In this document: in pieces, positions 16,595-33,635 of the stretch
Layout: each line of letters opens with the position of its first letter
Position numbering within the stretch: position 1 is the stretch's first letter
NCBI RefSeq assembly: GCF_003950295.1
Contig: NZ_RHNP01000029.1
Span: 1-39,643 of the forward strand
Origin: Loigolactobacillus iwatensis
Lineage (GTDB): Bacteria > Bacillota > Bacilli > Lactobacillales > Lactobacillaceae
DNA length: 39,643 nucleotides
Direction: 5' to 3'
Notes under the pieces: generated by a model
What the model saw: only the letters and a program-made list of their open reading frames with translations
Told to the model about the DNA's origin: nothing
The model's database searches: none
Position numbers and translations under genes: made by a program

Positions 16595-16840
16595 AGATGC
16601 TACTTCGCAATTACGGTTAGTTATTTACAAAAAACGCAAATAACGCATGCTACTACGAATATTACCTATTCCCGTGACAAAAACCAAGGGACACGGTTAT
16701 AAAACCCATAACTGTGTTTTCCCAACTAAATTCGTCTCGCTCACCGCAAGAACTAGCAAGGCAAAGAACGCTAAGTTGAAACATGGCAGCCGCAGAAATC
16801 CGTTTTTTCAAACACGTTTCCACCAAATTAGTCAGAAAAA
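16595..16840. repeat. Large intergenic repeat, copy B0
   Basis: Non-coding repeat of about 245 bases between the CNNM/CBS and AI-2E genes, and the explanation of most of this 450-base gap. The right end has GTTTTTTCAAACACGTTTCC and then ACCAAATTAGTCAG. The left inverted end is eroded. Internally it aligns with copy B2 (33351-33635): TTACGGTTAGTTATTTACAA, then GGTTATAAAACCCATAACTGTG. The latter forms a hairpin. Short reading frames inside it are not conserved between copies. Confidence 0.75.
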
Positions 16841-17016
16841 CACAATCTAGTTTGATCAACATCACTATCAAAACCAGTAATAATCATTGTGTACTAGTAG
16901 TTAGCCAACAATTGTAGCTCTAAGCCAATTTTTTGCAGCATCCACACAAAAATCGTTTCAAGACATTTCTAAAAGTCACTGTCAAATACTAACATTAAAT
17001 ACCGTTCTTTTCAATT

Positions 17017-18162
17017 TCATTCGTTTGGACTATCCGATTTTTGGGTTTCAGTTTCGGGTAATTCCTTTTCACGTGTACGTAGTTGGTAAATGTCCCAAAA
17101 ATACTTAACAACCGTCTTAACGATTGCGTAAAAGGGAATTGCTAAAATCATTCCGAGTATTCCGGAAATATTACCGGCCACCAATAACAAAATAATGATC
17201 GTCAAAGGATGAATTGATAGCGTTCGGCCGATAACGTTGGGATAAATAAAGTTCCCATCCACCTGTTGAACAACCACAACAACGATGATCACCAATATAA
17301 TCTGCATTGGTGACACAGTTAGGGCCACAATCAAAGCCGGCGCAATCCCAATATACGGTCCAACGTAGGGAATAATATTGCAAATACCGGCAATAAAACC
17401 CAGTAAAAAGGCGTAAGGCATACCGATCAACAAATAACCTAAAAAGGTGAAAACACCAACAAAAGTACACTCAATAAGTTGGCCACCAATATAGGTTGAG
17501 ATTGTTTCGCCCATTTTTGAAAGTAAATCAGTTGTCTCGGCTTTATAGCGGTTGGGCATTAATTTTTGAATACTGGGAATTAACCGGTGACCATCTTTCA
17601 GCATATAAAACAACATCACCGGAATAGTGATGGCTGTAACCGCAACGCTTGTCACGGTGCCAACTACGGAACCAAGGCTAGAAGTGACCGAACTCATGAC
17701 AGACTGCAAGATATCACTAAAGGATAAATTCAGTTGATTGATGTATTTTTCAGCATTAACATTCTGTAGCCACGGGCTTTTCAGCCATTCACGGGCGGTT
17801 TTTTCCATGGCCGACGCAAAGTCCGGCAAACTAACAACTAATTGCGCAATTTGCTTAACTAGATTTGGAATAACGGTCATCACAATCAGTGCCAAACCAC
17901 CAAAGAAAATTAGGAAAACAATTAAAATTGCCCAATTTCGGGAAATCTTCAAATGACCCAATAATTTAATTAGGGGATTAAATAGATAAAACAAAAATCC
18001 CGCAATTAGAATAGGAATAAACAGGGTTGAAACAAAAGTTCCAATTGGTGAAAAAACAAAACTAATTTTCGTACAAACAAAAATTAAGCTTGCGACAATT
18101 AACAGTTCTAGTGACCAAAACATTAATCGTGACTTTCGTAGCCATTCAAACATCCACATCAT
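17017..18162 (-). CDS. AI-2E family (PerM-type) membrane permease
   Basis: 381-residue polytopic membrane protein of the PF01594 family. It has an N-terminal pair of hydrophobic segments, a long amphipathic stretch (about 105-150) and then five C-terminal segments, including LLGFIAGICNIIPYVGPYIG, the family signature. Members export small molecules or act as ion antiporters; autoinducer-2 export holds for few, so the substrate is unknown. AAAGGA precedes three clustered ATG codons; the second or third may be the real start, which would shorten it by one or three residues. No clear terminator is visible downstream. Confidence 0.9.
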   Translation of the reverse strand: MMWMFEWLRKSRLMFWSLELLIVASLIFVCTKISFVFSPIGTFVSTLFIPILIAGFLFYLFNPLIKLLGHLKISRNWAILIVFLIFFGGLALIVMTVIPNLVKQIAQLVVSLPDFASAMEKTAREWLKSPWLQNVNAEKYINQLNLSFSDILQSVMSSVTSSLGSVVGTVTSVAVTAITIPVMLFYMLKDGHRLIPSIQKLMPNRYKAETTDLLSKMGETISTYIGGQLIECTFVGVFTFLGYLLIGMPYAFLLGFIAGICNIIPYVGPYIGIAPALIVALTVSPMQIILVIIVVVVVQQVDGNFIYPNVIGRTLSIHPLTIIILLLVAGNISGILGMILAIPFYAIVKTVVKYFWDIYQLRTREKELPETETQKSDSPNE

Positions 18163-18199
18163 TTCCTTTCACACTGGCCAGTTTACACCGTGCGCGTTA

Positions 18200-18208
18200 T
18201 GTTATAAT
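18200..18208 (+). promoter_or_regulatory. Extended -10 promoter of the GNAT gene
   Basis: TGT-TATAAT, 70 bases before the start codon. A TTTACA is present at a short 15-base spacing (18182-18187). Confidence 0.5.
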
Positions 18209-18279
18209 TATTTTACCAAATTTAAGAAAACTATTTCATTTAGTCGCTTAGTTCTAAATCTTACAAAGAAGGTTGATCC

Positions 18280-18711
18280 ATGAAAATTCAACATACTACT
18301 GACACGACGAGCCGGCTTTATCAAGACGCCTTAAGTATTCGGAAACGTGTTTTCGTCCACGAACAGAATGTAAGTCTTGCCCTTGAAATTGATGAAAATG
18401 AAACTAAAACCATTCACTTTGTTGGTTACGTCAATGACCAGCCTGTGACCACCGCTCGGTTACTCCCTGAAAAAAAAGCCTTTCACGTCCAACGGGTGGC
18501 GACTCTCAAAATAGCACGTGGCCACCATTATGGGCAACAATTATTCACTGCCTTAGAAAACTACGCCGTGGCGCACAATAAACCGGCATTAATCCTTGGT
18601 GGCCAAGATCAGGCACTAGGCTTTTACGAAAAACTCGGCTTTCATAAAACAGAGCGGCCAGGCTTTCTAGACGCCGGCATCCCCCACCACGAAATGTATA
18701 AGCAGTTATAG
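18280..18711 (+). CDS. GNAT family N-acetyltransferase
   Basis: 143-residue acetyl-CoA-dependent acyltransferase. The N-terminal part IRKRVFVHEQNV resembles the ElaA/YjcF branch. The acetyl-CoA loop is HVQRVATLKIARGHHYGQQL (about 69-88), and the C-terminal motif is GFYEKLGFHKT. The substrate cannot be told. A GAAGG site lies seven bases before the ATG. It is a single-gene unit with its own promoter, convergent with the DUF402 gene. Confidence 0.88.
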   Translation: MKIQHTTDTTSRLYQDALSIRKRVFVHEQNVSLALEIDENETKTIHFVGYVNDQPVTTARLLPEKKAFHVQRVATLKIARGHHYGQQLFTALENYAVAHNKPALILGGQDQALGFYEKLGFHKTERPGFLDAGIPHHEMYKQL

Positions 18712-18809
18712 GTTAGCGTAAGTCACTCCAGCTTGTAATTCAATTACGACCTACCACTCACCAAATGTCTAAATAAAGTACACTTAGAGCAAGTTTGATA
18801 ATTATTTTA

Positions 18810-18880
18810 TTAGTATTTTCCTGACTAATGTGGTCTAAACTTGCTTAAAAAGCCGGTTCTCGACCGTTTTTTCAAATACT
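18810..18880. repeat. Minimal intergenic repeat, copy E
   Basis: A near-palindrome (TTAAAAAGCCGGTTCTCGAC then CGTTTTTTCAAA) made of just the two inverted ends of the larger repeats, fused back to back. Its left flank (TTAGTATTTTCCTGACTAAT) matches the flank of copies B0 and D. It lies directly before the 18897-18945 hairpin. Confidence 0.6.
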
Positions 18881-18896
18881 CCCGCAATAGCTGTAT

Positions 18897-18945
18897 AAAA
18901 GAGGAGGTTAAGACAAATTCCATTTTGTCTCAACCTCCTCTTTTT
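18897..18945. terminator. Bidirectional terminator, type-A repeat variant
   Basis: Arms AAAAGAGGAGGTT-AGACAAA and TTTGTCT-AACCTCCTCTTTT, with A and T runs on each side, between the convergent GNAT and DUF402 genes. It resembles the AGAGGCTGGGACAAA hairpins elsewhere but lacks their tail. Confidence 0.88.
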
Positions 18946-19024
18946 ACTGACTAAATGTAGTCGTCTAAACTGTAAATAAAAGTAGTTTTTTTCACACGCT
19001 ACTTCATTAAAATTCATTCCATGG

Positions 19025-19558
19025 CTACCGGTGGGCGAGTTCTAAATAACGATTGTACCAAATATCAATATACTCTTTGGAGAATGGCCCTTTATGGTTA
19101 TCCGACCAATCAACCAAAATATTAACGTTGGCCTTTAAAATTTTATCGGTTGCGTTTGAATAACCCCAGCGTTGCCGGTTTACTTGGTATTCATCAACAT
19201 CTAATAATTTACGTTCACCGTCAGGAAACACCTTAACATCCAAATCATAATCGATATACTTCAGTGCCTCGCGATCTAAAACGTACGGCGATGCTAGGTT
19301 ACAATAGTATGAAACGCCATTGTCCCGAATCATCGCAATAATATTAAACCAATAATGCTTGTGGAAAAAGATGATCGCGGGTTCCCGGGTAAGCCAGCGG
19401 CGGCCATCCGATTCCGTCACTAAAGTATGATCATTACAACCAATAATTTCGTTTTCCGAGGTTTTCAAAACCATCGTATCACGCCACGTCCGGTGTAAAC
19501 TGCCATCATGTTTATAACTTTGGATCGCGAACGATTCCCCTTCTTTTGGAATACGCAT
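19025..19558 (-). CDS. DUF402 family nucleoside tri-/diphosphatase-like protein (YgaC type)
   Basis: 177-residue soluble protein of the family whose characterised members hydrolyse nucleoside di- and triphosphates (Ntdp). Family-typical segments are [10 protein letters not shown] (about 22-31), a CNLASPY stretch and the acidic metal-site region [29 protein letters not shown] site precedes the ATG. It has its own promoter at 19606-19634 and lies 105 bases downstream of recX in the same direction. Family assignment is firm; the physiological substrate is not known. Confidence 0.88.
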
Positions 19559-19605
19559 GCGTCACCCTGCTTTCTAGAAGCTGTTAACACCGAATTATCA
19601 TGAAC

Positions 19606-19634
19606 ATTATACCAAAATTTACCAGTTGTGACGA
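19606..19634 (-). promoter_or_regulatory. Promoter of the DUF402 gene
   Basis: Minus strand: TCGTCA (19629-19634), a 17-base spacer and TATAAT (19606-19611) preceded by TGG. Confidence 0.6.
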
Positions 19635-19663
19635 TGATTTAATGAAAGTTTCCTGAAAGTCAC

Positions 19664-20467
19664 TTACTGATTTGTTAGTTGTTCATCTAAAAAACGATTA
19701 ATTTCATCCAAATGAAAGCCTTTTTGGTACAATCGCTGCTTAATTTTTTGGCGTCTTTTGTTTGCTTCCAAACGCGCCGTTTGCCGCATTACTTTCTCAC
19801 CTTGCTGTACTAGAGCTTGCCATTCTCGCTCTGGGTCAGGTTCTAAATCTAATTGCAGCAAAATCTGATCAAGACTTTCTCCAGAAAATCCTTTTTGCAT
19901 TAAGCCTAAACGAACTTTTTGTTTTTGCTGGCTAAAACTAAGCTTCTGGTAATGCTTTGCCAATTTTTGTGCGGCCTTAAGTCCGTTAGCAACCAAATCA
20001 TTCGTCTGGTAAAGCTCTAACGCATCTTCAATTGAGTTTTCCTTAATTCCCTTTTCCTTCAGCTTTTGAGTAATCACAGTTGGTCCCTTGTCACTTGTTA
20101 ACATGACTGTCCGCACATAACTTGCAGCATAATCTTGATCATTAACTAAATTTAATTCCTGCAACTTAGCAATAATCTGTTGTCGAGCGCTGACAGGTAT
20201 TTCGTGTTTTTTTAAATAAAGCCGAACTTCCATCTCGGAACGTAGCTGATGGCTTAAATACGTTAGCGCCAATTGGTAAGCCTTGGACACATTGTCGGCG
20301 GCCATCAACGTTTGCTGTAATTTTTTTGGAACTTCCATTCCCTTAAACAAACGGTACTCAACTAGGACTGATTCACTAACTGGAAAAGCGTACTGTTCAT
20401 CTAAATAAACGTTGTAGCGCCCTTTACGCTTTTGTGCCTCAATCATAGTAATCACAGGCTGTGCCAT
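19664..20467 (-). CDS. recX: Regulatory protein RecX
   Basis: Binds RecA filaments and limits recombination and SOS activity. 267 residues, the long three-repeat form usual in lactobacilli. Helical repeats are visible as YLSHQLRSEMEVRLYLKKHE, LNLVNDQDYAASYVRT and KVRLGLMQKGFSGESLDQIL. I chose the ATG at 20467, seven bases behind AGAGGGGG; the open frame runs nine codons further to a TTG with no site. It has its own promoter (20499-20528) and no obvious terminator. Divergent from the RumA-type gene across 740 bases filled mostly by repeats. Confidence 0.95.
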   Translation of the reverse strand: MAQPVITMIEAQKRKGRYNVYLDEQYAFPVSESVLVEYRLFKGMEVPKKLQQTLMAADNVSKAYQLALTYLSHQLRSEMEVRLYLKKHEIPVSARQQIIAKLQELNLVNDQDYAASYVRTVMLTSDKGPTVITQKLKEKGIKENSIEDALELYQTNDLVANGLKAAQKLAKHYQKLSFSQQKQKVRLGLMQKGFSGESLDQILLQLDLEPDPEREWQALVQQGEKVMRQTARLEANKRRQKIKQRLYQKGFHLDEINRFLDEQLTNQ

Positions 20468-20498
20468 TGTGTCCCCCTCTTTCGTTATATCCAATTAC

Positions 20499-20528
20499 AT
20501 TATACCTAAATCATTCCACGTAATGCAA
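20499..20528 (-). promoter_or_regulatory. recX promoter
   Basis: Minus strand: TTGCAT (20523-20528), an 18-base spacer and TATAAT (20499-20504), about 30 bases before the start codon. Confidence 0.6.
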
Positions 20529-20558
20529 ATGTATGTTCGCCTAGTCCGTATTCGGCTA

Positions 20559-20567
20559 TGTTATACT
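20559..20567 (+). promoter_or_regulatory. Possible extended -10 facing the RumA-type gene
   Basis: TGT-TATACT on the plus strand, before both repeats. If used, the transcript of the RumA-type methyltransferase would have a leader of about 630 bases containing both repeat copies. No good -35. Confidence 0.25.
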
Positions 20568-20584
20568 TATTTGGTGGTTGGAAA

Positions 20585-20842
20585 ATACTTTTACGCGTAT
20601 CTTCTTGACCCATTTAGTGTAAACGTGTTTGAAAAAGCAGATTCCTGTGCTTGCCATGTTTCAACTTGGCGAATTACGCCGTAGTTGAATGGACAACGTA
20701 TGGAACATCAGGATTATTAGCGTACTTAGCTAATAATCTTCAATTGCGGAATAGTAGTTACGATCGCCAAATCATCTGTTTCACAGCTAATTCGTCAATC
20801 TAGACTAATGCTCGGAACCTGGGCGCTTTTTCAGGCACTCTC
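20585..20842. repeat. Large intergenic repeat, copy C1
   Basis: Non-coding. Left end AAACGTGTTTGAAAAAGCAG; right end CTTTTTCAGGCACTCTC is its partial inverse. Read on the minus strand, the interior aligns well with copy B1 (33122-33345), for example TTATTAGCTAAGTACGCTAA, then ACGTTGTCCATTCAACTA and CGCCAAGTTGAAACATGGCA. The flank GACCCATTTAGTGT is also found beside copy D. Confidence 0.8.
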
Positions 20843-20846
20843 AGTT

Positions 20847-21172
20847 TAAACGTGTTTGAAAAAGCAGATTCCTGCAGTGACCAAGACGAATTAAGTCGCG
20901 AAAATACACTTACAGCCTTTGTAACTGTGCTCCTTGGCTTTTGCCACAAGAAGAGACAACATTCGTAGCATCAAAAGTTATTTGTGCTCTTTGCAAATAA
21001 CTAACTGTAAATTGCAAAGTGGTAGTTGAGTGGACAACGGATGAAATATCAAGGTTATTAACGGTCTAGGTTGCGATTTGAACTTTGGTTTATCTTAGTC
21101 CGATCGACAGCGTCAGCGAGGCCAGTAATAATCCCCAATTGCAAAGTAGAATCGAACCGCTTTTTCAAACAA
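20847..21172. repeat. Large intergenic repeat, copy C2
   Basis: The longest copy, about 325 bases, head to tail with C1 after only four bases. The ends are AAACGTGTTTGAAAAAGCAG and GAACCGCTTTTTCAAACA. On the minus strand its first half resembles the B1/C1 subtype and its second half the B0/B2 subtype (CAGTTAGTTATTTGCAAAGA, GGAGCACAGTTACAAAGG), so it looks mosaic. It ends 34 bases before the next start codon. Confidence 0.78.
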
Positions 21173-21206
21173 TCTTGAAGCAAATAAATTTAAGTGAGGC
21201 AAATTA

Positions 21207-22610
21207 ATGGCTAATTCAAACTACGAACACGGTACTAGTAACATCGAAATCGGACAACGTTTTCCCTTAACAATTAAGCGCCTAGGCATTAATGGTGAAG
21301 GTATTGGCTACTACAAGCACACCGTTGTTTTTGTGCAAGGCGCACTTCCCGACGAAGTGGTTGTTGCCGAGGTCGTTGCAACGGCGCCACATTTTATTAC
21401 GGCTAAGATCCACAAAATTCGGCAACAAAGTCCAGCCCGGGTTACACCAAGAGACGAGCAGTACGGTGACGTTGGCGGGATTGAGCTAGAACACCTTGCT
21501 TATCCCGAACAACTTAAATTCAAGGCCGATGTTATCCAACAGGCCTTAGAAAAATTTAAGCCCCAGGGTTACAAAAATTACGATATACGGCCAACGATTG
21601 GTATGGCTGACCCCTACGAATACCGCAATAAGGCCCAATTTCAAGTTCGGCAAATTAATGGTCACGTTGCCGCTGGTTTATACCGAAAAAATAGTCATGA
21701 TTTAGTTGATTTACCGACTTTCAGCACCCAACGACCAGCGATTATGTCAACAATGCGCTACTTAGTCAACTTAATTGAGCAATTGGCAATCCCAGTTTAT
21801 GATGAAACTGCAAAATCCGGCATCATCAAAACAATTGCCATACGAGAATCAATCACAACTGGCCACTTACAGGTCACTTTGATCACTAACACACCCAAAT
21901 TGCCTAAAAAGCACGCTTTGTTAACAGCAATTGCGGCCGACCTACCTGAAGTAACTTCCGTTATGCAAAACATTAATCCTGGTGAAACTAGTTTAATTTG
22001 GGGCGAAGAAACGCGCCGCTTGGCTGGTGATACGTATTTAACCGAAACGATTAACGGCTATACTTTTAAACTATCTGCCCGGGCTTTCTTCCAATTAAAT
22101 CCCAAACAAACGGAAAAGCTTTATCAGTTAGCAGAACAGGCGCTTAATTTATCCCAACACGAAACTTTAATCGACGCCTACTGCGGTGTTGGTACACTGG
22201 GGATCTCTTTGGCCCACACGGCGAGTGAAGTTCGCGGGATGGATACAATTCCTGAAGCTATCGCTGACGCCAAAGAAAATGCTGAACTCAACCAAGTCAC
22301 CAATGTTCACTATGAAGTCGGTAAGGCTGAGGAGCTACTTCCTCAGTGGTTGCGTGAAGGTTTCGAACCCGATGCCTTAATTGTGGATCCACCACGAACT
22401 GGCCTAGATAACCAACTACGCCAAACCATTCTTGACAGTCGCCCAGAAAAATTTGTTTATATCAGTTGTAATCCTTCAACTCTTGCCCGGGATCTTGTGA
22501 GCCTTGTGAAAGACTACCGCGTTGATTATATTCAGTCAATTGACATGTTTCCCCAAACGGCACGGGTCGAAGCAGTCGTCAAGTTTAGTAAACGCCAATT
22601 ATACCGTTAA
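21207..22610 (+). CDS. RumA/RlmCD-type 23S rRNA (uracil-5-)-methyltransferase
   Basis: SAM-dependent m5U methyltransferase. 467 residues: a TRAM domain (about 15-70), a central domain and a C-terminal Rossmann domain with DAYCGVGTLG, a VDPPRTGLD motif and the catalytic cysteine in YISCNPSTLARD. The N-terminal iron-sulfur cysteines of E. coli RlmD are absent: the CxxCGGC region reads DEQYGDVGGIELEHL. Firmicute relatives (RlmCD) methylate U747 and U1939; which target this paralogue uses is unknown, because a second family member lies at 37887-39251. A GTGAGG site precedes the ATG. Two intergenic repeats lie just upstream and a terminator hairpin follows. Confidence 0.93.
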   Translation: MANSNYEHGTSNIEIGQRFPLTIKRLGINGEGIGYYKHTVVFVQGALPDEVVVAEVVATAPHFITAKIHKIRQQSPARVTPRDEQYGDVGGIELEHLAYPEQLKFKADVIQQALEKFKPQGYKNYDIRPTIGMADPYEYRNKAQFQVRQINGHVAAGLYRKNSHDLVDLPTFSTQRPAIMSTMRYLVNLIEQLAIPVYDETAKSGIIKTIAIRESITTGHLQVTLITNTPKLPKKHALLTAIAADLPEVTSVMQNINPGETSLIWGEETRRLAGDTYLTETINGYTFKLSARAFFQLNPKQTEKLYQLAEQALNLSQHETLIDAYCGVGTLGISLAHTASEVRGMDTIPEAIADAKENAELNQVTNVHYEVGKAEELLPQWLREGFEPDALIVDPPRTGLDNQLRQTILDSRPEKFVYISCNPSTLARDLVSLVKDYRVDYIQSIDMFPQTARVEAVVKFSKRQLYR

Positions 22611-22642
22611 AGAAAAGTACTTTTCTAAATTATATAGCCGGA

Positions 22643-22752
22643 AAGAGGCTGGGACAAAAGTCCTAGCCTCTTCTTATTTCCGCACATTACTCTAGGACGT
22701 GCACCAAAGTCCGGGTTCACGTGCCTCCAAAAACGACTTTTTCGCACTCTTC
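22643..22752. repeat. Type-A repeat with terminator hairpin
   Basis: Hairpin AAGAGGCTGGGAC / GTCCTAGCCTCTT at 22643-22672 terminates the methyltransferase gene. The tail (TTATTTCCGCACATTACTCT, then GGACGTGCACCAAAG) matches the copies at 352 and 28771. The far end GACTTTTTCGCACTC is an imperfect inverse of the start and resembles the ends of the larger repeats. Confidence 0.75.
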
Positions 22753-22836
22753 TTTTATTTGGCAGCGTAAAGATTGAATCTAGCACTTAATTCCGCCACA
22801 ATGAAGCTACTAACAGTAAAGGAGCGCGACTAATTT

Positions 22837-24204: not shown

Positions 24205-24233
24205 ATAGTTCTTTCTAACTACAAATGAGCACT

Positions 24234-24317: not shown

Positions 24318-24319
24318 AT

Positions 24320-26349: not shown

Positions 26350-26377
26350 ATTATACCGAAAAAAATTAATTTGTGAA
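26350..26377 (-). promoter_or_regulatory. Promoter of the YihY gene
   Basis: Minus strand: TTCACA (26372-26377), a 16-base spacer and TATAAT (26350-26355). Leaves a leader of about 150 bases. Confidence 0.5.
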
Positions 26378-26518
26378 CTTGAACCGATCAAAGTTAGACC
26401 TTACACGTTTTTGTTTACCAGTTTTACTAATAAATGTAGGACAAGTAAATGAGATTATCTTCGCCAAGGCATGGTCGATACTTTTCAATTTTAGGTTAGT
26501 GTGAAACAAAGACAATTA

Positions 26519-26547
26519 TTTTCAATCCACCAGAACTTTGTTATAAT
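26519..26547 (+). promoter_or_regulatory. Flavodoxin promoter
   Basis: TTTTCA (26519-26524), 17 bases, TATAAT (26542-26547) with an upstream TGT extension, 30 bases before the start codon. Confidence 0.65.
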
Positions 26548-26577
26548 CAAGGCTGGATCATTAAAGGAGCGAAGAAA

Positions 26578-27027
26578 ATGGCAAGCGCAAAAATCGTGTA
26601 TGCAAGTATGACCGGCAACAATGAAGAAATTGCCGATATTGTTTCAGAAGCGTTAGAAAACCTTGACGTTGACGTTGAAGTTGATGAAATCTCCCAGGCC
26701 GATGCCGAGGACTTTGAGGACGTCGATATCTGTATCGTTGCGACTTATACTTACGGCGATGGTGAATTACCTGATGAGGCCGTTGACTTCTTTGAAGATC
26801 TTGAAGAAGAAGACTTGGCCAACAAAATATATGGTGTCTGTGGTTCAGGAGATACCTTTTACGATGATTTTGGCAAATCCGTAGATGATTTTGACGCTGC
26901 GTTTCAAAAATCTGGCGCCACTAAGGGTGCAGAAACCGTCAAAGTCGATTTAGAAGCAGAAGAGGACGATATTGAGCACCTTGAGGCCTTTGCTAAGAGT
27001 CTAGTTGAAAAGGCTGCTAATAATTAA
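26578..27027 (+). CDS. Flavodoxin
   Basis: Small FMN-binding electron carrier, 149 residues, very acidic as usual. The FMN phosphate loop is SMTGNNEEIA (10-19), the isoalloxazine loops are ATYTYGDGELPDE (about 55-67) and the GVCGSGDTFYDDFG segment. Short-chain type. Physiological partners cannot be read from the neighbours. AAAGGAG lies just before the ATG. A repeat (27065-27177) and a hairpin (27235-27291) follow. Confidence 0.95.
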   Translation: MASAKIVYASMTGNNEEIADIVSEALENLDVDVEVDEISQADAEDFEDVDICIVATYTYGDGELPDEAVDFFEDLEEEDLANKIYGVCGSGDTFYDDFGKSVDDFDAAFQKSGATKGAETVKVDLEAEEDDIEHLEAFAKSLVEKAANN

Positions 27028-27064
27028 GCGTGGTTCTAAAATTGGGTGAAGCTAGTTTGGAAAC

Positions 27065-27177
27065 TATCTTTACTAGTATTTACTTGGCCAATTTAGTGTA
27101 AACGTGTTTGAAAAAGCAGATTCCTGTGGTTAGTCTAGATTGACAAATGCTCGGAACCTGAGCACTTTTTCAAACAC
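27065..27177. repeat. Short intergenic repeat, copy D
   Basis: A deletion form of the large repeats. The flank plus left end (CCAATTTAGTGTAAACGTG, then TTTGAAAAAGCAGATTCCTG) is followed after only about 35 bases by the other end (TGCTCGGAACCTGAGCACTT, then TTTCAAACAC). Relative to copy C1, a 16-base internal segment (TTAGTCTAGATTGACA) is in the opposite orientation. Confidence 0.72.
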
Positions 27178-27234
27178 CCCCTAAATTATTTAGTAAAACT
27201 CAATTCACTATCGTTTTAAAACATTCATTAATTA

Positions 27235-27291
27235 GAAAGTCGATCCGGAGATTACTTGTGTTAAGCTTAACACAGACTAGATCGGCTTTTT
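27235..27291 (+). terminator. Nested hairpin before the GT2 gene
   Basis: Outer arms AAAGTCGATC / GATCGGCTTTTT and, within the loop, a perfect 16-base palindrome GTGTTAAGCTTAACAC. The T-run makes it a terminator. It is 208 bases after the flavodoxin stop but only 35 bases before the GT2 start, so it could also act as an attenuator of GT2. Confidence 0.7.
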
Positions 27292-27325
27292 GTTAGCAAT
27301 TATTTTTAAGGAGGCGTGGCAGAAT

Positions 27326-28258
27326 ATGCCTGGTAAATTATCTTTAATTGTTCCCTGCTTTAACGAAGAACAAACCTTACCACTATTTTACCCAGCTACA
27401 GAAAAAATCAAAACTCAACTGCGCGGCCTATCGTTGGAATATTGGTTTATTAATGATGGCTCTCGCGACAGTACCCTAGACAAATTAAAGCAGCTACAAC
27501 AAAATGATCCAGAACACGTCCACTATATTTCCTTTTCCCGTAATTTTGGTAAGGAATCCGCACTGTACGCCGGTTTGCAAGCGGCAACTGGTGATTATGT
27601 TGCGGTGATGGACGCTGACCTACAGGATCCACCTGAATTGCTGCCAACGATGCTTGCTGGCATTCAGGATGAACATTATGATATTGTCGGCACGAAGCGA
27701 ACTGATCGCAAGGGTGAACCACCAATTCGATCATTTTTCTCAAATCTTTTTTACCGGCTAATTAACCACATCTCTAACACGCCAATTTTAAATGGCGTTC
27801 GGGATTTTCGGCTGATGACCCGGCAAGTTGTCGACGCCATTTTAGCGATGAAAGAATACCGTCGCTTCTCTAAAGGTATTTTTAGTTGGGTGGGTTTTAA
27901 CACTAAATACTTGCCCTACGAAAACCATGATCGGATCGCCGGAAAGACTTCCTGGTCCTTTGGCAAATTATTTAAATATTCACTAGATGGCATTGTGGCT
28001 TTTTCCGAACTACCTTTATCCATCGCCTCATTTGTCGGCTTTTTCTCATTTGTTATCGCGATCATCGCCTTATTTTTCATCGTTATTCGGCAATTGGTCT
28101 TTGGTGACTCCGTGGCTGGCTGGGCTTCAATCGTTTCAATCATGATTATGGTTGGTGGCTTGCAACTACTTTGTTTGGGGATTGTTGGTAAATATATTGG
28201 CAACATTTATCTAGAAGTTAAAAATCGCCCAATTTACATTATTAAAGAAAAAAAATAA
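27326..28258 (+). CDS. GT2 polyprenyl-phosphate glycosyltransferase (GtrB/CsbB type)
   Basis: Transfers a sugar from a nucleotide donor to undecaprenyl phosphate for glycosylation of surface polymers outside the cell. 310 residues: a GT-A domain with VPCFNEEQTLP, an INDGSRDST site, VMDADLQDPPE and FSRNFGKESAL, then two C-terminal membrane segments (about 240-265 and 275-298). The start is the ATG at 27326, directly behind AAGGAGG; the frame extends twelve codons to a TTG inside the terminator, which I reject. No flippase (GtcA-like) or transferase (YfhO-like) gene is adjacent, so the partners must be elsewhere. Confidence 0.92.
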   Translation: MPGKLSLIVPCFNEEQTLPLFYPATEKIKTQLRGLSLEYWFINDGSRDSTLDKLKQLQQNDPEHVHYISFSRNFGKESALYAGLQAATGDYVAVMDADLQDPPELLPTMLAGIQDEHYDIVGTKRTDRKGEPPIRSFFSNLFYRLINHISNTPILNGVRDFRLMTRQVVDAILAMKEYRRFSKGIFSWVGFNTKYLPYENHDRIAGKTSWSFGKLFKYSLDGIVAFSELPLSIASFVGFFSFVIAIIALFFIVIRQLVFGDSVAGWASIVSIMIMVGGLQLLCLGIVGKYIGNIYLEVKNRPIYIIKEKK

Positions 28259-28328
28259 GCGTATTTCTGCAGAATTACCCACCGCATTTTCAATAATAAG
28301 CGGTTTACTTTTTCTGAATACGTTTTTT
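28259..28328 (+). terminator. Terminator of the GT2 gene
   Basis: Arms CGTATT-CAGAA and TTCTG-AATACG (four-base bulge) followed by TTTTTTT. Confidence 0.65.
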
Positions 28329-28422
28329 TATAATTAAGCAGACACACTAATTTTCAAAGTAATTTCAGTCAATAAAGCTCGCAAATTTGAATGCTTTTAG
28401 GCACACTGGTAGGTTGATAAAA

Positions 28423-28653
28423 ATGTATTTTATTTTACTAATTATTATAAGTATTAGCTTGTTACTCAGTGTGTTTGGCACTAGTCTTGTTCTTGCTAAT
28501 CGTAACAGTGTCAACTGGAAGATCATTTTGACGCTACTTTGTGTTATCTTAATTTTTGGGCTTAGCCTTGGCTATTTTATTTGGCTACGTCAAAATCACC
28601 CGCAACTTTTATTTGCGCTTAAATCAGTCCTTTACAACTATTTAAAAGCGTGA
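28423..28653 (+). CDS. Small two-segment membrane protein
   Basis: 76 residues with two hydrophobic segments (about 2-25 and 33-54), a short loop (ANRNSVNWK) and a basic C-terminal tail. I do not recognise the family. I use the ATG at 28423, nine bases behind a weak AGG; the frame opens earlier at a TTG. A TATAAT at 28329-28334 is the only promoter-like signal nearby. It lies just upstream of tRNA-Arg in the same direction and might be co-transcribed with it. A credible but unproven gene. Confidence 0.5.
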   Translation: MYFILLIIISISLLLSVFGTSLVLANRNSVNWKIILTLLCVILIFGLSLGYFIWLRQNHPQLLFALKSVLYNYLKA

Positions 28654-28669
28654 GAAAATTAATTCATTC

Positions 28670-28743
<74 letters not shown>

Positions 28744-28770
28744 TCACGTAAATCTATTGAATAACTAAAA

Positions 28771-28861
28771 TAGCAAGAAGCCAGGACTTTTGTCCTGGCT
28801 TCTTGCTATTTCCGATCATTGTTCTAGAACATGAACCCAAAACCGACTTTTGTCTCACTCC
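28771..28861. repeat. Type-A repeat with terminator hairpin
   Basis: Hairpin AGCAAGAAGCCAGGAC / GTCCTGGCTTCTTGCT at 28773-28808 lies between tRNA-Arg (+) and the convergent DUF3284 gene (-). The tail TTTCCGATCATTGTTCTAGA matches the copy at 352. The far end CCGACTTTTGTCTCACTC is inverse to the repeat's own start. Confidence 0.8.
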
Positions 28862-28864
28862 ATG

Positions 28865-29278
28865 TTAGTATGATTTTTCAATCTGCAAAAACATTTTCCT
28901 AAAGTTACGGCGTTTTAGTGCTCCTAAGAAAGTTTCCCTAGTAACATCCACTAATTGTTGCCATAGCCCGAGGGAGATATTCTGTTCTTGATACACAACC
29001 CGACTTTGATCGGCATTAATTGTTGTTAAATCATAACTTACCTTGCGCTTATTATGCTTAGTCGTCATCTCGTAGTGATAGCTTTGATTAAGGATGTTTT
29101 TGGTGATTCGAACCTGAGCTTTAGTTTCGGGATCCAGCTGCTTATCGTAAGTGAAACCTTGTAACTGACTAACAGATAAAACTTCACCTGTCTGCGCCTT
29201 AATTTCAAAAAGCTCAGCATCAATAATTTTACTGTATAAAAAGGCCGCCGGAATATTCAATAATTGTTCGATTCTCAA
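28865..29278 (-). CDS. DUF3284 family protein
   Basis: About 137 residues of the DUF3284 family, a START-like small protein common in lactobacilli and other Firmicutes, without known function. It begins MRIEQLLNIPAAFLYSKIID and includes the ITKNILNQSYHYEMTT strands. The frame starts five codons earlier at an ATG without a ribosome-binding site; a TTG at 29278 lies directly behind GGGGGTGA, which I take as the start. Single gene, convergent with tRNA-Arg. Confidence 0.8.
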   Translation of the reverse strand: MRIEQLLNIPAAFLYSKIIDAELFEIKAQTGEVLSVSQLQGFTYDKQLDPETKAQVRITKNILNQSYHYEMTTKHNKRKVSYDLTTINADQSRVVYQEQNISLGLWQQLVDVTRETFLGALKRRNFRKMFLQIEKSY

Positions 29279-29387
29279 AGTTATCACCCCCATAAGCTTG
29301 CTTACTATCGAGAATCATATTTCTACCTTAAAGTATACGCTTCTCTAATTCTAAATGGAATTTTTTAGTATGAGTAATGTAAGGGCT

Positions 29388-30653
29388 TTATTGGTCAACC
29401 TTTTTATTAGCTTTGTGTTTACCTTTATTACGTTGATCACGCTTACGATGCTTTTTCTTTGGTTTTTCCACCGTTTTTGGTTCCAATTTTGGTGTACGCT
29501 TATGCTTGCTTGTCGGCCGCTGCTTGGGCTTTTCTACTACCGAAACTTTAGTCGGATCAGTGGTTAACGTCTGCTGGGTTAAATAAACGGGGGTCAGTTG
29601 ATACTCATCCCGAACAACTTGTTTCAAATCACGAAAATCACGCTTATTTCCCAAGTTAATTACTAAACCATCATGCCCCATACGCCCAGTTCGGCCCACT
29701 CGGTGAATATAAATATCCAATTCACGAGGCAGATCAAAATTAACAACTGCTGGTAAGGCCGCAATATCTAATCCGCGGGCAGCCACGTCGGTTGTTAACA
29801 ATAGTTTAACCTTGCGTTGGCGAAAATCAGCCAGCGCCTTTTCACGTTCAACTTGCCGCATTTGACCGTTTAAAACAGCGAAAGAAACGTGCTGGTGGCC
29901 TAAGACCTCTGCCGCATTCGCCATTTCGGCTAAGGTTGCAAAGAACACAAGCCCATAGAAATCGTCTAACCGGCTTAAACGCCGCAACATATCTGTTCGC
30001 TTACGAATTGGTGTTTCCAATAAGTAATGCAGTACTTTACCAGCACTGTCATCAATCTTGCGCACGTCAATCGTCTGAATCGGTAACCCAAACCACTTTG
30101 GTAATTCATCTAAAATTGGGGTTTTTGTTGCCGAAAAGAAAGCCAATTGGGTTTCTCCCGGTGCACGCCGAACAATATCCCGCGTCTTTTCTAACTTGTC
30201 CGGTACTAATTGTTGATCGGCTTCGTCAATAACAATCGTTTGTAAGGTATGCAGTTTCACCTTCCGTTGATCGATTAATTCCAACAAACGCCCCTCAGCG
30301 GCCACCAAAACTTCAGGCTTTTTCTTCAACCGCTCAATCTGGCGTTTAATGTTGGCGCCGCCAGCAACGGCCTGAATTGTTAGGCCAACTGCCTTAGCAA
30401 ATGGCTGAATTGCAGCCTTTTCCTGCATAACTAATTCCTGTGACGGTGCTAAAATTAAAAGTTGAATGCCTTGGCCCGGTAATAATTTTTCTAATAGAGG
30501 TAACGCAAAGGCTAACGTCTTACCTGAGCCAGTCGGTGCCAGGCCCAAAATAGAGACGTCTTTTTTTAACGGCTCATAAACTGCCTTTTGAATTGCTGTT
30601 AATTCACCTAAACCTAATGCTTGCCATGGTTCCGTAAATCTTTCACTTGGCAT
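29388..30653 (-). CDS. DEAD-box RNA helicase (YfmL-like)
   Basis: 421-residue ATP-dependent RNA helicase, compact like B. subtilis YfmL. Visible motifs: Q-motif region (ELTAIQ), motif I APTGSGKT (39-46), DEAD (143-146), SAT, and HRVGRTGR with the second RecA domain. The motif usually reading TPGR is AEGR (VAAEGRLLEL). The last 60 residues are lysine-rich (KHKRTPKLEPK, then KKKHRKRDQRNK), a likely RNA-binding tail. The start is the ATG at 30653 behind GAGG; the stop of the upstream oxidoreductase lies inside that ribosome-binding site, so the two are coupled. Confidence 0.93.
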   Translation of the reverse strand: MPSERFTEPWQALGLGELTAIQKAVYEPLKKDVSILGLAPTGSGKTLAFALPLLEKLLPGQGIQLLILAPSQELVMQEKAAIQPFAKAVGLTIQAVAGGANIKRQIERLKKKPEVLVAAEGRLLELIDQRKVKLHTLQTIVIDEADQQLVPDKLEKTRDIVRRAPGETQLAFFSATKTPILDELPKWFGLPIQTIDVRKIDDSAGKVLHYLLETPIRKRTDMLRRLSRLDDFYGLVFFATLAEMANAAEVLGHQHVSFAVLNGQMRQVEREKALADFRQRKVKLLLTTDVAARGLDIAALPAVVNFDLPRELDIYIHRVGRTGRMGHDGLVINLGNKRDFRDLKQVVRDEYQLTPVYLTQQTLTTDPTKVSVVEKPKQRPTSKHKRTPKLEPKTVEKPKKKHRKRDQRNKGKHKANKKVDQ

Positions 30654-30661
30654 GATTTTCC

Positions 30662-31657
30662 TCAATTCTCTTGATCAGCAGCAAATTCAATTCCTGCTGA
30701 CTGTCTTAATTTAAATAACACTTGATTAACTGCTTGACTTGTTTTTAATGCCGAATTGGCCATTTGATGATCCTGCGTCGTCATTATCGAATAAAAGGCC
30801 TCTGCTTCATGCGTCATTGGGTTTTCATCGGCTGGTTCGCCTAATTCAACCGTTTTACCATCTGGTTGATGCCGAGTTACCTGGGCTAAATCAGCAGCAT
30901 TAGGAGCCAATACCAGCGTTTCGTGTAGCCCGTAAATTTCCGATGGTAAATAAGAAGTAGCATTTTTACCAAAGATTAACGTCACGTTAAAATCAGGATA
31001 CGTCAGGATAGCCGTCCCCCTACCGTCAACTCCCGTTGGTAAAAGGTTAGCAAAATAATGAACGTCATCTGGTACACCAAACCAGGAAACGGCGTCGTAA
31101 ACGACGTACACGCCTAAATCCTGCAGCGAACCACCAGAGAATTTAGGCGAAAAAATATTCGGTGTCTTACCGGCTAAAACTTGATCGTAACGGGAAGAAT
31201 ATTTCATGTAAACTAACGTCGCTCCCTGCACCTGATCCAGCGTTTGAATGGCCTGTTTGGTAATTTGAAAATTAGGTTCATAAACGTGGCGGGCAGCCTC
31301 AAATAAGAACAACTGCGGCTTTTTGGCTAATAAGGCAGTAATTGTTGCCATTTCCGTTGGGTTAGAGAACGCTGGCTTTTCTACGATGACATTCTTGTCA
31401 GCTTCTAAAGCAGCCTTTGCCTGTTCAAAATGTAAACTATTTGGTGAAGCAATGTAGACAACGTCAAAACTGCCTTGGGAAAAGAAATCCGCTAAGGAAG
31501 TGAAAACTTCGCCAGCTTCGTACTTGGTCGCTACTTGCTGTGCCTTTTCTTCAGTTCGCGAATAAACACTGGTTAGTTGATACTTCTTGGTACTTAAAGC
31601 AGCCTGAATAAACTGTTCGGTAATCCAATTTGTCCCAATTATGCCAAGTTTTAACAT
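30662..31657 (-). CDS. Gfo/Idh/MocA family NAD(P)-dependent oxidoreductase
   Basis: 331 residues. The N-terminal Rossmann fold has GIIGTNWI near the start, the EKPAF motif typical of this family lies near residue 94, and an alpha/beta substrate domain follows (GGSLQDLGVYVVYDAV). It oxidises or reduces a sugar-like substrate that cannot be named. Two in-frame ATGs: the first abuts GAGAGG, the second (31657) is nine bases behind it and is the better start. First gene of a two-gene unit with the DEAD-box helicase, a pairing with no obvious functional logic. Confidence 0.9.
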   Translation of the reverse strand: MLKLGIIGTNWITEQFIQAALSTKKYQLTSVYSRTEEKAQQVATKYEAGEVFTSLADFFSQGSFDVVYIASPNSLHFEQAKAALEADKNVIVEKPAFSNPTEMATITALLAKKPQLFLFEAARHVYEPNFQITKQAIQTLDQVQGATLVYMKYSSRYDQVLAGKTPNIFSPKFSGGSLQDLGVYVVYDAVSWFGVPDDVHYFANLLPTGVDGRGTAILTYPDFNVTLIFGKNATSYLPSEIYGLHETLVLAPNAADLAQVTRHQPDGKTVELGEPADENPMTHEAEAFYSIMTTQDHQMANSALKTSQAVNQVLFKLRQSAGIEFAADQEN

Positions 31658-31767
31658 GTCAATCATCCTCTCAATTCAATAAAGTTTTTAACATCAGCTT
31701 TTCACTCTCTCTATTTTAACCCAGTCCCATAAAAAAAGCGATTGACGTACTGTTTAAAGAGATTTCG

Positions 31768-31776
31768 TGCTATGAT
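31768..31776 (+). promoter_or_regulatory. Extended -10 of the DUF4828 gene
   Basis: TGC-TATGAT, 32 bases before the start codon. A TTGACG lies 23 bases upstream of it, too far for a normal -35. Confidence 0.4.
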
Positions 31777-31807
31777 GTGTCTAAGAGAGATTGAAAGGTG
31801 TGCAATC

Positions 31808-32194
31808 ATGAGATTAAAAAAATGGGCAACTGGTGGCGTTAGTTTTATTAAGCAATTATCAACTTACTTAACTCGCCGTCCCACCAAAACGCCACCAGTA
31901 AAACAAGCCAATTTGCCTTCACTTTACATTGGCACGTGGACTTTCTATGATGAACAACAAAAGCGGCACCACACCTTTCAAGTATCATCCCGCCTAACAA
32001 TTAAAATTGATGGTAAACCTTTAGCGGGTAAAATTATAAAATTAACGGCAAAACAATTACTTTTTTTAGATCAATATGGCTACGAACTGCTAATTACTGC
32101 TGATGAACAGCAACCGGCAACCATCTTTGATGAGGCAGATCAACGCACCTATCCAATTGCACATCTCAAAAAAGATGCCACAAAAGAAGTTTAG
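31808..32194 (+). CDS. DUF4828 family protein
   Basis: 128 residues. A basic N-terminal segment (about 1-40) is followed by the DUF4828 domain: YIGTWTFYDEQQKRHHTFQV, then LTIKIDGKPLAGKIIKLTAK and FLDQYGYELLI, closing with DEADQRTYPI. The function is unknown. The ATG sits nine bases behind AAAGG; the frame is open 22 codons upstream, but that part overlaps the promoter. Single-gene unit, divergent from the oxidoreductase, with its own terminator. Confidence 0.8.
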   Translation: MRLKKWATGGVSFIKQLSTYLTRRPTKTPPVKQANLPSLYIGTWTFYDEQQKRHHTFQVSSRLTIKIDGKPLAGKIIKLTAKQLLFLDQYGYELLITADEQQPATIFDEADQRTYPIAHLKKDATKEV

Positions 32195-32247
32195 CTTTGA
32201 CTGCCTAATGCAGAAAGTTATTTGTAAAATACAATTCAAACACAGAT

Positions 32248-32300
32248 AAAAGGCTCCGGAATTTTTCAGTTAACCTGACTGAATATTCTGGAGTTTTTTT
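32248..32300 (+). terminator. Terminator of the DUF4828 gene
   Basis: Long stem CTCCGGAAT-TTCAGT / ACTGAATATTCTGGAG with seven T's after it. Confidence 0.88.
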
Positions 32301-32332
32301 ATCGTTTATAATTATATCAAACACCATAGCAA

Positions 32333-33082
32333 TCATTGCCCTAACGAAATAAATTGCTGCCAGCGGGCCTGTTTATGCAAATAGACTAAAGTTGTATATC
32401 TCTGATTTTGGCCGGCAACCTTTAGTTTCCCGGCTTCACTATATTCCCAAAAAACCAAATTATGCTGATCTTTAGGTAACCGTTGACTGGCCAATGCATA
32501 CGGTAGTTTTAAACGCCTAAGTAAAGTTGTCGCCACTTGCTGATTGCCTAAAAGAACAACTGAGCGATGATAATTTGTTCGCAATAAATTTACAAACTCA
32601 CGCAGATGCGCAATTTGCCGCGAACTTGTCGGCGGCTCTTTTTGGTAGTTTCCGTAATAAATGACGTTAATCATAATGGGTAGATTACCACTTTGTTGGC
32701 CCACGGTTTGGCTAAACTGCCGGTATTGAGCCTTAGGACTACTGGTGAAGCTATAATCCTGATAAACACCGATGGCCATATTAGTGCCAACTGCTCGCCA
32801 ATAATTGGTTGAAAAATTGTCATCACTATAACTTTTCCCCTGACTTGCCCGTAAATAAACAAAATTAACGCCGGCCTTTTGTAAATTCTGAAAATCCAGA
32901 AAGCCATCATCCTGACTAACGCGCAAACCCAATATCGGAAATGATTTTATATCCGGTCGCGTGCCCTCGTGAAATTTATGATAACCAAAACCGCCAATAA
33001 CCCCAATTAAACAAAGCAGTAATGTCAACATGATCAGTCGTTGACGCCACTGCTTTTTTCGCTTTAGCCGTCTACTCAACAT
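32333..33082 (-). CDS. Membrane-anchored GH25-like protein lacking canonical catalytic residues
   Basis: 249 residues: a basic N-terminus, one hydrophobic segment (about 17-34) that looks like a signal anchor, then a GH25 lysozyme-like fold outside the cell. The fold is recognisable from LDFQNLQKAGVNFVYLRASQ, NYWRAVGTNMAIGVYQDYSF and PIMINVIYYGN. GH25 muramidases use an aspartate in G-[IV]-D-V-S and a D-x-E pair on the fourth strand. Here these read GLRVSQ (R54) and INVI (N139, I141). Cell-wall hydrolysis by the known mechanism is therefore doubtful, although sugar binding may remain. AAGGAG lies nine bases before the ATG. A repeat abuts its promoter. Confidence 0.82.
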   Translation of the reverse strand: MLSRRLKRKKQWRQRLIMLTLLLCLIGVIGGFGYHKFHEGTRPDIKSFPILGLRVSQDDGFLDFQNLQKAGVNFVYLRASQGKSYSDDNFSTNYWRAVGTNMAIGVYQDYSFTSSPKAQYRQFSQTVGQQSGNLPIMINVIYYGNYQKEPPTSSRQIAHLREFVNLLRTNYHRSVVLLGNQQVATTLLRRLKLPYALASQRLPKDQHNLVFWEYSEAGKLKVAGQNQRYTTLVYLHKQARWQQFISLGQ

Positions 33083-33105
33083 TTAACATCGCTCCTTATT
33101 TTTCT

Positions 33106-33134
33106 AGTTTAACACGATTTAGAGAGTGTTTGAA
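33106..33134 (-). promoter_or_regulatory. Candidate GH25 promoter using the repeat end as -35
   Basis: Minus strand: -10 TAAACT (33106-33111) with TGT extension, a 17-base spacer and TTCAAA (33129-33134). The -35 lies within the inverted end of repeat B1. Confidence 0.4.
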
Positions 33135-33345
33135 AAGGCGGTTAGCTTCTGAGGATTAGCCTAAACGGACGAATTATCTGTGAAACAGATAGTTTGGCTG
33201 TTGTAGCTACTATTTCGCAATTGAGAATTATTAGCTAAGTACGCTAATAATTTTGATGCTGCATACGTTGTCCATTCAACTAAGGCAAAAACCGCCAAGT
33301 TGAAACATGGCAACCGCAGGAAGCTGCCTTTCCAAACACGTTTCA
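33122..33345. repeat. Large intergenic repeat, copy B1
   Basis: About 224 bases, with ends GAGAGTGTTTGAAAAGGCGG and CCTTTCCAAACACGTTTC. The interior includes GAATTATCTGTGAAACAGAT (an inner ATCTGT/ACAGAT stem), TTATTAGCTAAGTACGCTAA and ACGTTGTCCATTCAACTA, all shared with copy C1 in opposite orientation. Non-coding. Confidence 0.8.
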
Positions 33346-33350
33346 GAAGA

Positions 33351-33635
33351 GAGTGCCTGAAAAAGCGGTTAGATTCTACTTCACAATTACGGTTAGTTAT
33401 TTACAAAGATCACAAATAACTCACAATGCTACGAACGTTGTCCATTCTTGCGGCAAAATCAAGGAACACAGTTATAAAGTCCATAACTGTGTTTCCTCGA
33501 CTAAGCCCGTCTCAGTCACCGCCAGAAACATGGCAGCTAGGCGAAAAGAGACGCGCAGCGGATCGTTCGACTAGCGTAGCTATACGTAATAATTTGCTTT
33601 TTCAAACACGTTTCCGTTAGGTTAATCACGCAAAT
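33351..33635. repeat. Large intergenic repeat, copy B2
   Basis: Head to tail with B1 after a five-base junction. The ends are GAGTGCCTGAAAAAGCGG and TTGCTTTTTCAAACACGTTT. Two hairpins are visible: GTTATTT / AAATAAC (about 33396-33421) and GGAACACAGTTAT / ATAACTGTGTTTCC (about 33461-33495). Both recur in C2, and the second also in B0. Together with B1 it fills the 675-base gap between the GH25 and permease genes. Confidence 0.8.

What the first reader, a model, noticed from the sequence alone, without database searches (positions are those of the whole stretch)
16595..33635. Family of structured non-coding intergenic repeats with inverted ends GTGTTTGAAAAAGC(G/A)G
Seven copies (16595, 18810, 20585, 20847, 27065, 33122, 33351) and two remnants (about 455 and 36674) lie only between genes in 40 kb. 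They have inverted ends, shared interiors over 200 bases in both orientations and no conserved reading frame. One side often carries a further shared flank (TGACTAATTTGGTGTAAACG-like). This fits a MITE-like or structured-RNA repeat family, but no transposase or obvious target duplication is visible. I do not recognise it as a named element.
Basis: partly seen in the sequence, partly recalled or inferred. Interest (0 to 1): 0.72.

Follow-up and report, generated by a model that had tools for sequence, protein, structure and literature searches.

The report
Stop-codon-hugging RNA hairpin repeats in lactobacilli
These intergenic repeats belong to a large, apparently undescribed family of about 111-base hairpin elements spread through many lactic acid bacteria, shaped as if they act as RNA and very often sitting a few bases behind the stop codon of a gene.

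Summary
The window (a Loigolactobacillus close to L. backii) carries long, branched or broken members of a genome-wide repeat family: 291 end motifs against 7 in the control, 138 covariance-model matches among 150 scored candidates. The basic unit is 5'-AGA-[111-nt hairpin GTG...CAC]-GTTT-3'. The arms co-vary: 97.6% of cells paired, 23 of 46 pairs with double-sided changes. Wobble pairs show which strand is selected: GU 101 versus AC 22; in other species and genera that sense folds better in 45 of 48 copies. Matches occur in 85 of 251 Lactobacillaceae genomes and 15 of 40 genera, including Lp. plantarum EGD-AQ4 (30). No Rfam family fits. Copies spread as discrete units without detectable target duplication. 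The main new finding lies outside the window: arrays start within 10 nt of a co-directional stop codon in 24 of 51 cases (1.5 expected); no window copy does. Best reading: a dispersed, sense-selected 3'-UTR hairpin that works like stop-proximal REPs or ERIC but fails membership tests for both. How it moves and what it does remain inferred.

The parts
33126..33339 (+). 214-nt element with both ends; folds as a multi-branched structure closed by the outer stem
   Evidence: RNA fold -78.8 kcal/mol, z -7.3; model match 33126-33242, 43.5 bits
33353..33609 (+). 257-nt element, 13 nt behind the previous one (head-to-tail array)
   Evidence: RNA fold z -4.46
20625..20838 (-). 214-nt element; not present as a separate unit at this locus in L. 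backii
   Evidence: core match 20755-20807
20852..21172 (-). 321-nt element with extra arms, upstream of rlmD; present in L. backii
   Evidence: fold z -2.91, 1 of 100 shuffles as good
27104..27177 (-). 74-nt internally deleted element; L. backii keeps only its R end
   Evidence: model match 52.4 bits
16595..16815 (+). element with intact R end and missing L end
18841..18879 (-). collapsed copy: L end and short hairpin followed by the R-flank module
20576..20624 (-). R-flank module (TGACYNATTTAGTGTAAAC-like) beyond the R end; also at about 27055-27103, 18790-18840 and 16816-16840
   Evidence: read
460..475 (-). remnant R-type end next to a copy of a second repeat family
36680..36699 (-). remnant L-type end (AGGA|GTGTTTGGAAAG)
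   Evidence: read

Best explanation
A non-coding dispersed element whose unit is AGA-[about 111-nt hairpin]-GTTT. Shown: the arms are kept complementary while their sequence changes; one strand (L to R) is favoured as the folded molecule; near-identical units recur in unrelated surroundings with similarity falling off at AGA and GTTT; units form head-to-tail arrays and gain or lose branch modules; arrays very often begin 1-10 nt behind a co-directional stop codon, and in two genomes of another genus are usually followed by an intrinsic terminator. Inferred: there the element is transcribed as the 3'-UTR hairpin of the upstream mRNA. A ribosome finishing the gene must meet or open the outer stem, so the hairpin couples translation termination to the fate of the mRNA 3' end (ribosome pausing and tmRNA rescue, or protection from or exposure to RNases), as described for stop-proximal REPs and for ERIC. 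New copies are probably placed by an unidentified enzyme acting in trans. The copies of this window, which face gene starts or are broken, would be members not at such a site.
For: Covariation: 35 distinct copies, 97.6% cells paired against 36-47% when slid, 23 of 46 pairs with double-sided change. Strand: GU 101 vs AC 22, in columns 39-56 GU 93 vs AC 5; other species and genera: 45 of 48 fold better L to R, GU 175 vs 51. Unit borders: 186 non-orthologous pairs, identity 0.98/0.81/0.79 at -1..-3 then 0.42 and 0.35; 0.98/0.85/0.87/0.96 at +1..+4 then 0.55. Unit shared between genera: 87% identical copies on L. curvatus plasmid p-1.1928_1 and in Loigolactobacillus G004, no DNA similarity beyond the unit, 12 and 10 nt behind stops of ORFs with different C-termini. 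Stop adjacency (10 nt or less): own genome 24 of 51 arrays (1.5 expected), L. backii 12 of 36 (1.7 expected); 20 nt or less: G098/G068 15 of 20, other loci 22 of 39. Control: R end facing a stop within 10 nt, 2 of 37. Terminator within 130 nt behind 12 of 15 stop-adjacent arrays of G098/G068 against 78 of 205 other stops.
Against: No RNA or protein data. Many arrays are not stop-adjacent (27 of 51 in the own genome, 24 of 36 in L. backii), and no window copy is. In L. backii most arrays (21 of 36) are not even co-directional with the L-side gene. Counting single elements instead of arrays, orientation to neighbouring genes looks unbiased (32/27/24/20 of 103). The outer stem shows no strand preference in this genus (GU 7, AC 8), so it may act in DNA. 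A first, cruder terminator search in Loigolactobacillus found 1 of 36 against 66 of 692 stops. Some copies are near-perfect palindromes, so arm copying occurs too (L. backii bC51:2679). Genes were called by a crude longest-ORF rule.
Confidence: 0.5

Rival explanations
1. The hairpin is selected as single-stranded DNA: a strand-specific recombinase or transposase recognises the folded strand (as with IS200/IS605, REP/RAYT or integron attC; these comparisons are recalled), and the RNA-like features are by-products. Insertion would be without duplication at a short target such as ARA|G, which is common at stop codons.
For: Strand polarity, free stem sequence and lack of target duplication fit structure-specific single-strand recognition. 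At four loci where G068 lacks the element, the bases around the junction look like TTAGA|GATT, CACAG|GAAG, ATAAA|GGAT and TTTAA|GTAT (read by eye; flanks only about 80% alike, so uncertain).
Against: No Y1 transposase found in this genome or L. backii, the two richest in copies; the two genus members that have one hold the fewest copies. A target as short as ARA|G does not explain 24 of 51 arrays within 10 nt of a co-directional stop with about 1.5 expected in the same gaps.
Confidence: 0.25
2. Ordinary MITE: internally deleted derivatives of an insertion sequence with GTGTTTGAAAAAGC ends, moved by its DDE transposase.
For: In this genome and L. backii the ends are nearly fixed inverted repeats, copies are non-coding and dispersed.
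Against: No target duplication; in other species the end sequence is not conserved, only its self-complementarity; no transposase among 15 ORFs tested by Pfam of the 19 that lie between copies; strand polarity unexplained.
Confidence: 0.1
3. The complementarity is kept by a mutational process (template-switch correction of quasi-palindromes), not by selection.
For: Some L. backii copies have turned into near-perfect palindromes as if one arm had been copied onto the other (bC51:2679; locus opposite C4:38544).
Against: The asymmetric features that such correction would erase (4-nt bulge on the 5' side, bulged A30, A.G mismatch, L-specific TGAGSATTAGCC) are kept in nearly all of the 35 copies and recur in other genera; GU/AC asymmetry.
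Confidence: 0.07
4. The stop-codon position is passive: units land anywhere, insertions in genes are lost, and the TAGA end of the unit itself supplies the stop.
For: 11 of 36 stops lie at distance 3, and in 6 of these the stop is the TAG of TAGAGA; TAG is used in 16 of 36 against 198 of 702 in all ORFs. At S:55006 the occupied gene ends one codon earlier than the empty one.
Against: Stops lie at many distances (1 to 10) and are TAA in 18 of 36. ORFs running into the element are few (2 of 36 at -8, one locus seen in two species; 2 of 16 in G098/G068). R ends next to stops are rare (2 of 37). Two orthologous loci keep stop-adjacent three-unit arrays whose units look unrelated in their stems (by eye).
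Confidence: 0.25

Closest known systems
ERIC / IRU (enterobacterial 127-bp imperfect palindrome)
   Same: Dispersed over a bacterial family, intergenic, full-length imperfect hairpin of about the same size; reported effect on stability of the upstream transcript that depends on orientation (PMC2229807, passages seen).
   Different: No target duplication or TA termini found here; outer stem sequence free across species; arrays and branch modules; stop-codon adjacency. Homology to ERIC was not tested by sequence.
REP elements / REPINs with RAYT transposase
   Same: Hairpins; REPs within 15 nt of a stop codon are reported to stall ribosomes (PMC12306157, passages, citing earlier work); GTAG REPs often provide the stop TAG (PMC3733652, passage).
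   Different: 111 nt instead of 20-40 bp; AGA...GTTT borders instead of a GTAG/CGTC tag; no Y1 transposase found in the two richest genomes.
BOX and RUP of Streptococcus pneumoniae
   Same: Intergenic repeats of Lactobacillales; listed among stem-loop families in PMC2267715 (passage).
   Different: No Rfam match; RUP has TIR and target duplication (PMC2229807 table). Not compared by sequence.
Efa-1 of Enterococcus faecalis (163 bp, 65 copies)
   Same: Intergenic stem-loop family in the same order (PMC2267715, table passages).

Membership tests
REP/RAYT | 20-40 bp palindrome | tested here: not met
   commonest unit 111-112 nt; REP size from the start of the PMC3733652 abstract
REP/RAYT | GTAG or CGTC tag at one end | tested here: not met
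   borders AGA and GTTT: 102, 108, 115 and 114, 106, 113, 114 of 130 per position
REP/RAYT | Y1 (RAYT) transposase in the genome | tested here: not met
   PF01797 at E 1e-5: 0 in G000 and G001; found in 2 of 8 genus genomes, G002 and G003, which have the fewest copies
MITE (DDE type) | fixed terminal inverted repeats | tested here: inconclusive
   nearly fixed in this genome and L. backii; freely varying but self-complementary in other species
MITE (DDE type) | target-site duplication | tested here: not met
   no offset and length shows convincing excess in 130 flank pairs
MITE (DDE type) | related full element with transposase | tested here: inconclusive
   none among 15 Pfam-tested of 19 ORFs between copies in about 1.04 Mb of two genomes; whole genome not examined
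ERIC | about 127-bp full-length imperfect palindrome, intergenic | tested here: met
   111-nt hairpin; 91 of 109 copies do not overlap a crude ORF by more than 20 nt
ERIC | TIR with TA termini and target duplication | tested here: not met
   feature from the PMC2229807 table
ERIC | sequence homology to ERIC | not tested
   no ERIC sequence was compared
Known Rfam family | match to one of 4227 covariance models | tested here: not met
   window at gathering cut-off: only the tRNA; seven loci with units of L. backii and other genomes at E up to 0.1: four matches far below their families' cut-offs

The most novel reading that the evidence does not exclude
A mobile RNA module of lactic acid bacteria that settles at stop codons: arrays of sequence-variable, structure-conserved hairpins placed between stop codon and terminator read out ribosome arrival and set mRNA 3'-end decay or tmRNA-dependent output for dozens of genes per genome, with units exchanged and replaced while the array position is kept.
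Probability: 0.35. Interest if true: 0.82.

Novelty: new variant of a known kind. Interest (0 to 1): 0.68.

Why it matters
It would be an uncatalogued structured repeat found in a third of the sampled Lactobacillaceae genomes, including Lp. plantarum, with strong covariation and a position (1-10 nt behind stop codons) that gives a direct, cheap test of how hairpins at stop codons affect translation termination and mRNA decay in Gram-positive bacteria. It also poses a clean question about mobility: which enzyme moves a unit whose ends are not a sequence but a structure.

Tried and rejected
Simple chance or A/T-rich end artefact: rejected. Known RNA family: no Rfam match. Target duplication: none seen. 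Partner gene between copies: 19 ORFs, two of them inside elements; 15 were tested by Pfam (the other 4 are L. backii counterparts of tested ones): 11 are metabolic, transport, regulatory or similar genes, 4 have no Pfam match, none is a transposase. RAYT/IS200: not found where copies are most numerous. Phages: no match for two queries. The Lig. salivarius plasmid copies looked like unit-level transfer, but homology with Lp. plantarum runs over 416 bp, so they are not evidence for it; the L. curvatus plasmid copy is. Clean single-unit insertions between this genome and L. backii: none at the gaps of the three aligned chains that I looked at (about 88 kb); instead both species mostly keep elements at the same places with exchanged modules or ends. 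The empty-looking site at 16603-16863 looks like a rearrangement of an older copy (by eye). The orientation test on single elements looked negative; the signal appeared after merging arrays and leaving out ORFs lying inside them. A first terminator finder was too crude and is not used for the argument. Weak hits outside the family (7 genomes, 1-3 hits each) were not pursued except L284.

Literature: ten searches of open-access papers showed no description of this family in lactobacilli; I saw listings, and passages of PMC2267715, PMC1590033, PMC12306157, PMC3733652 and PMC2229807; a look into PMC5009743 found nothing. The L. backii genome papers listed were not opened, and subscription papers are not covered. 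Liang et al. 2015 on REPs at stop codons is recalled and known here only through passages of PMC12306157.
Full report
WHERE. The 467-aa RlmD protein beside the copies is 98% identical to that of Loigolactobacillus backii JCM 18665, and aligned DNA is about 92% identical (118 kb), so the window comes from a close sister of L. backii. Copies lie beside ordinary genes: recX, rlmD, an AI-2E transporter family gene, flavodoxin, a GH25 hydrolase, an amino-acid permease.

THE OBSERVATION. The end motif occurs 14 times in the window against 1.44 expected, and 130 + 161 times in the genome at up to 2 mismatches against 2 + 5 for the reversed control. In six contigs (407 kb with the window) 64 elements with both ends have quantised lengths: 111/112 (30), 214/215 (8), 257-259 (5), 269-274 (4) and 17 others from 68 to 370. 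The ends differ: L is ...AGA|GTGTTTGAAAAAGCGGTTAGATTC, R read inwards is ...AAAC|GTGTTTGAAAAAGCAGATTCCTGC. The longer forms carry extra hairpin arms; one 214-nt window copy folds as a branched structure (z -7.3); two other window copies have z -4.46 and -2.91.

STRUCTURE. I aligned the 35 distinct 111-nt copies found in the sequence held at that point (25 from this genome, 10 from L. backii). One long hairpin with conserved asymmetries (4-nt bulge on the 5' side, bulged A, A.G mismatch) accounts for them: 97.6% of 1610 cells paired, 23 of 46 pairs changed on both sides, 0 of 500 shuffles as good on paired cells, double-changed pairs or cells, or covariation score; one measure, further pair types, was reached by 121 of 500; slid controls 36-47% paired. 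Departures from Watson-Crick pairing are mostly GU on the L-to-R strand (101) and rarely AC (22), which would be GU on the other strand; almost all of this lies in columns 39-56 (GU 93, AC 5), none in the outer stem (7 to 8). Two copies folded singly agree (-53.5 against -45.4 and -53.6 against -41.0 kcal/mol). The 35 are related, so these counts are not independent events.

OTHER SPECIES. A covariance model gives 138 matches here and 101 in L. backii (150 candidates scored in each, partial matches included) and 13-53 in the six other genomes of the genus, matches in 85 of 251 genomes and 15 of 40 genera of the family at E of 1e-4 or less (15 candidates scored per genome, stricter filters, so a lower bound), and in 22 of 36 genomes reached through named loci: for example Lp. 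plantarum EGD-AQ4 30, Lp. herbarum 60, Pediococcus ethanolidurans 21, Levilactobacillus koreensis 36, Lacticaseibacillus saniviri 23, Agrilactobacillus yilanensis 57; none in Levilactobacillus brevis, in the two Weissella, two Leuconostoc and two Apilactobacillus genomes searched there, or in the Streptococcus. In the order, 7 genomes of other families among the 198 searched gave 1-3 weak hits each. For 48 copies of other species and genera (44 of the 73 matches after dropping repeats of the same place, opposite-strand matches and fragments, plus 4) the L-to-R sense folds better in 45, GU 175 against 51, and the outer 12 pairs are Watson-Crick in 507 of 576 cells although the stems differ from each other at 5.25 of 9 positions on average. 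The model helped to choose the strand, but the flanks, which are not in the model, agree: AGA in 42, GTTT in 40 of the 48, and in none on the opposite strand.

UNIT AND MOVEMENT. Among 186 pairs of copies at least 90% identical in different places, identity is high to -3 (AGA) and +4 (GTTT) and then drops towards background, with a weak tail on the right. Over 130 flank pairs no duplication appears. One unit is shared (87%) between Loigolactobacillus G004 and a mobilisable plasmid of Latilactobacillus curvatus, with no DNA similarity beyond it, 10 and 12 nt behind the stops of ORFs with different C-termini. Between this genome and L. backii the same loci hold elements whose arms or ends have been exchanged or added (for example an extra arm at C23:92217; a different interior behind the same flank at C4:48414 and bC57:24308). 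Between two genomes of another genus (G098, G068) some loci are filled in one and empty in the other (55006, 58939, 98603, 117853; one the other way round, L294:13329-13555), and two others keep a stop-adjacent three-unit array whose units look unrelated in their stems (L299:7240-7589 and L293:9229-9584).

POSITION. With arrays merged, the L end lies within 10 nt behind a co-directional stop in 24 of 51 arrays here and 12 of 36 in L. backii, against 1.5 and 1.7 expected for random place and orientation in the same gaps; four loci are counted in both species. In G098/G068 16 of 20 arrays are co-directional, with the stop 1-7 nt before the unit in 12 and overlapping it by 11 nt in 2 (45 of the 49 matches were given, leaving out opposite-strand matches and one partial; 40 of these elements had a gene on both sides). 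In loci of other species, mostly best model matches and so not a random sample, 26 of 39 arrays are co-directional and 22 of these lie within 20 nt. The R end faces a stop within 10 nt in 2 of 37. Behind 12 of 15 stop-adjacent arrays of G098/G068 an intrinsic terminator follows within 130 nt, against 78 of 205 other stops; a cruder search in Loigolactobacillus did not see this (1 of 36 against 66 of 692). None of the window copies is stop-adjacent: they face gene starts or are broken.

MECHANISM. The most economical reading is a dispersed RNA hairpin that at its preferred site forms the 3' UTR directly behind the stop codon. Reports seen in part support two ways of acting: REPs within 15 nt of a stop stall ribosomes and lead to mRNA cleavage (passages of PMC12306157), and ERIC destabilises the upstream transcript in an orientation-dependent way (passage of PMC2229807). 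Which applies here, or whether the stop position mainly reflects where insertion is possible, is not decided by sequence. Single-strand DNA recognition remains a serious rival for the strand polarity, although no Y1 transposase was found.

VERDICT. A real, large, apparently undescribed family; it fails defining features of REP, ERIC and DDE-type MITEs that could be tested, but works like the first two.

Noticed in passing
window about 22643-22750, 28775-28860, 37730-37800 and 402-435: A second modular repeat family that begins with a terminator-like hairpin (GGGACAAAAGTCC) and carries CTAGAAC, GTTCACGTG and GGGTTTACTGCGTAACG parts; insertions and arm gains differ between this genome and L. backii, and units of the main family sit inside it at the same place in two copies (C23:97323, C23:84861).
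   Followed up: partly
L. backii bC51:2679-2789 and bC57:14784-14891 (locus opposite C4:38544): Copies that have become near-perfect palindromes, as if one arm had been copied onto the other.
   Followed up: partly
NC_006530.1 36930-37054 and five more Lig. salivarius plasmids: A Lp. plantarum-like unit inside a longer transferred segment, 0.3 kb from a recombinase gene.
   Followed up: partly
L284 1481-1640 (genome G404, another family of the order): A single hairpin with the same GCGGTTAG bulge pattern; possibly a distant relative outside Lactobacillaceae.
   Followed up: no
window 28670-28743: tRNA-Arg (CCT) gene next to a copy of the second repeat family.
   Followed up: no
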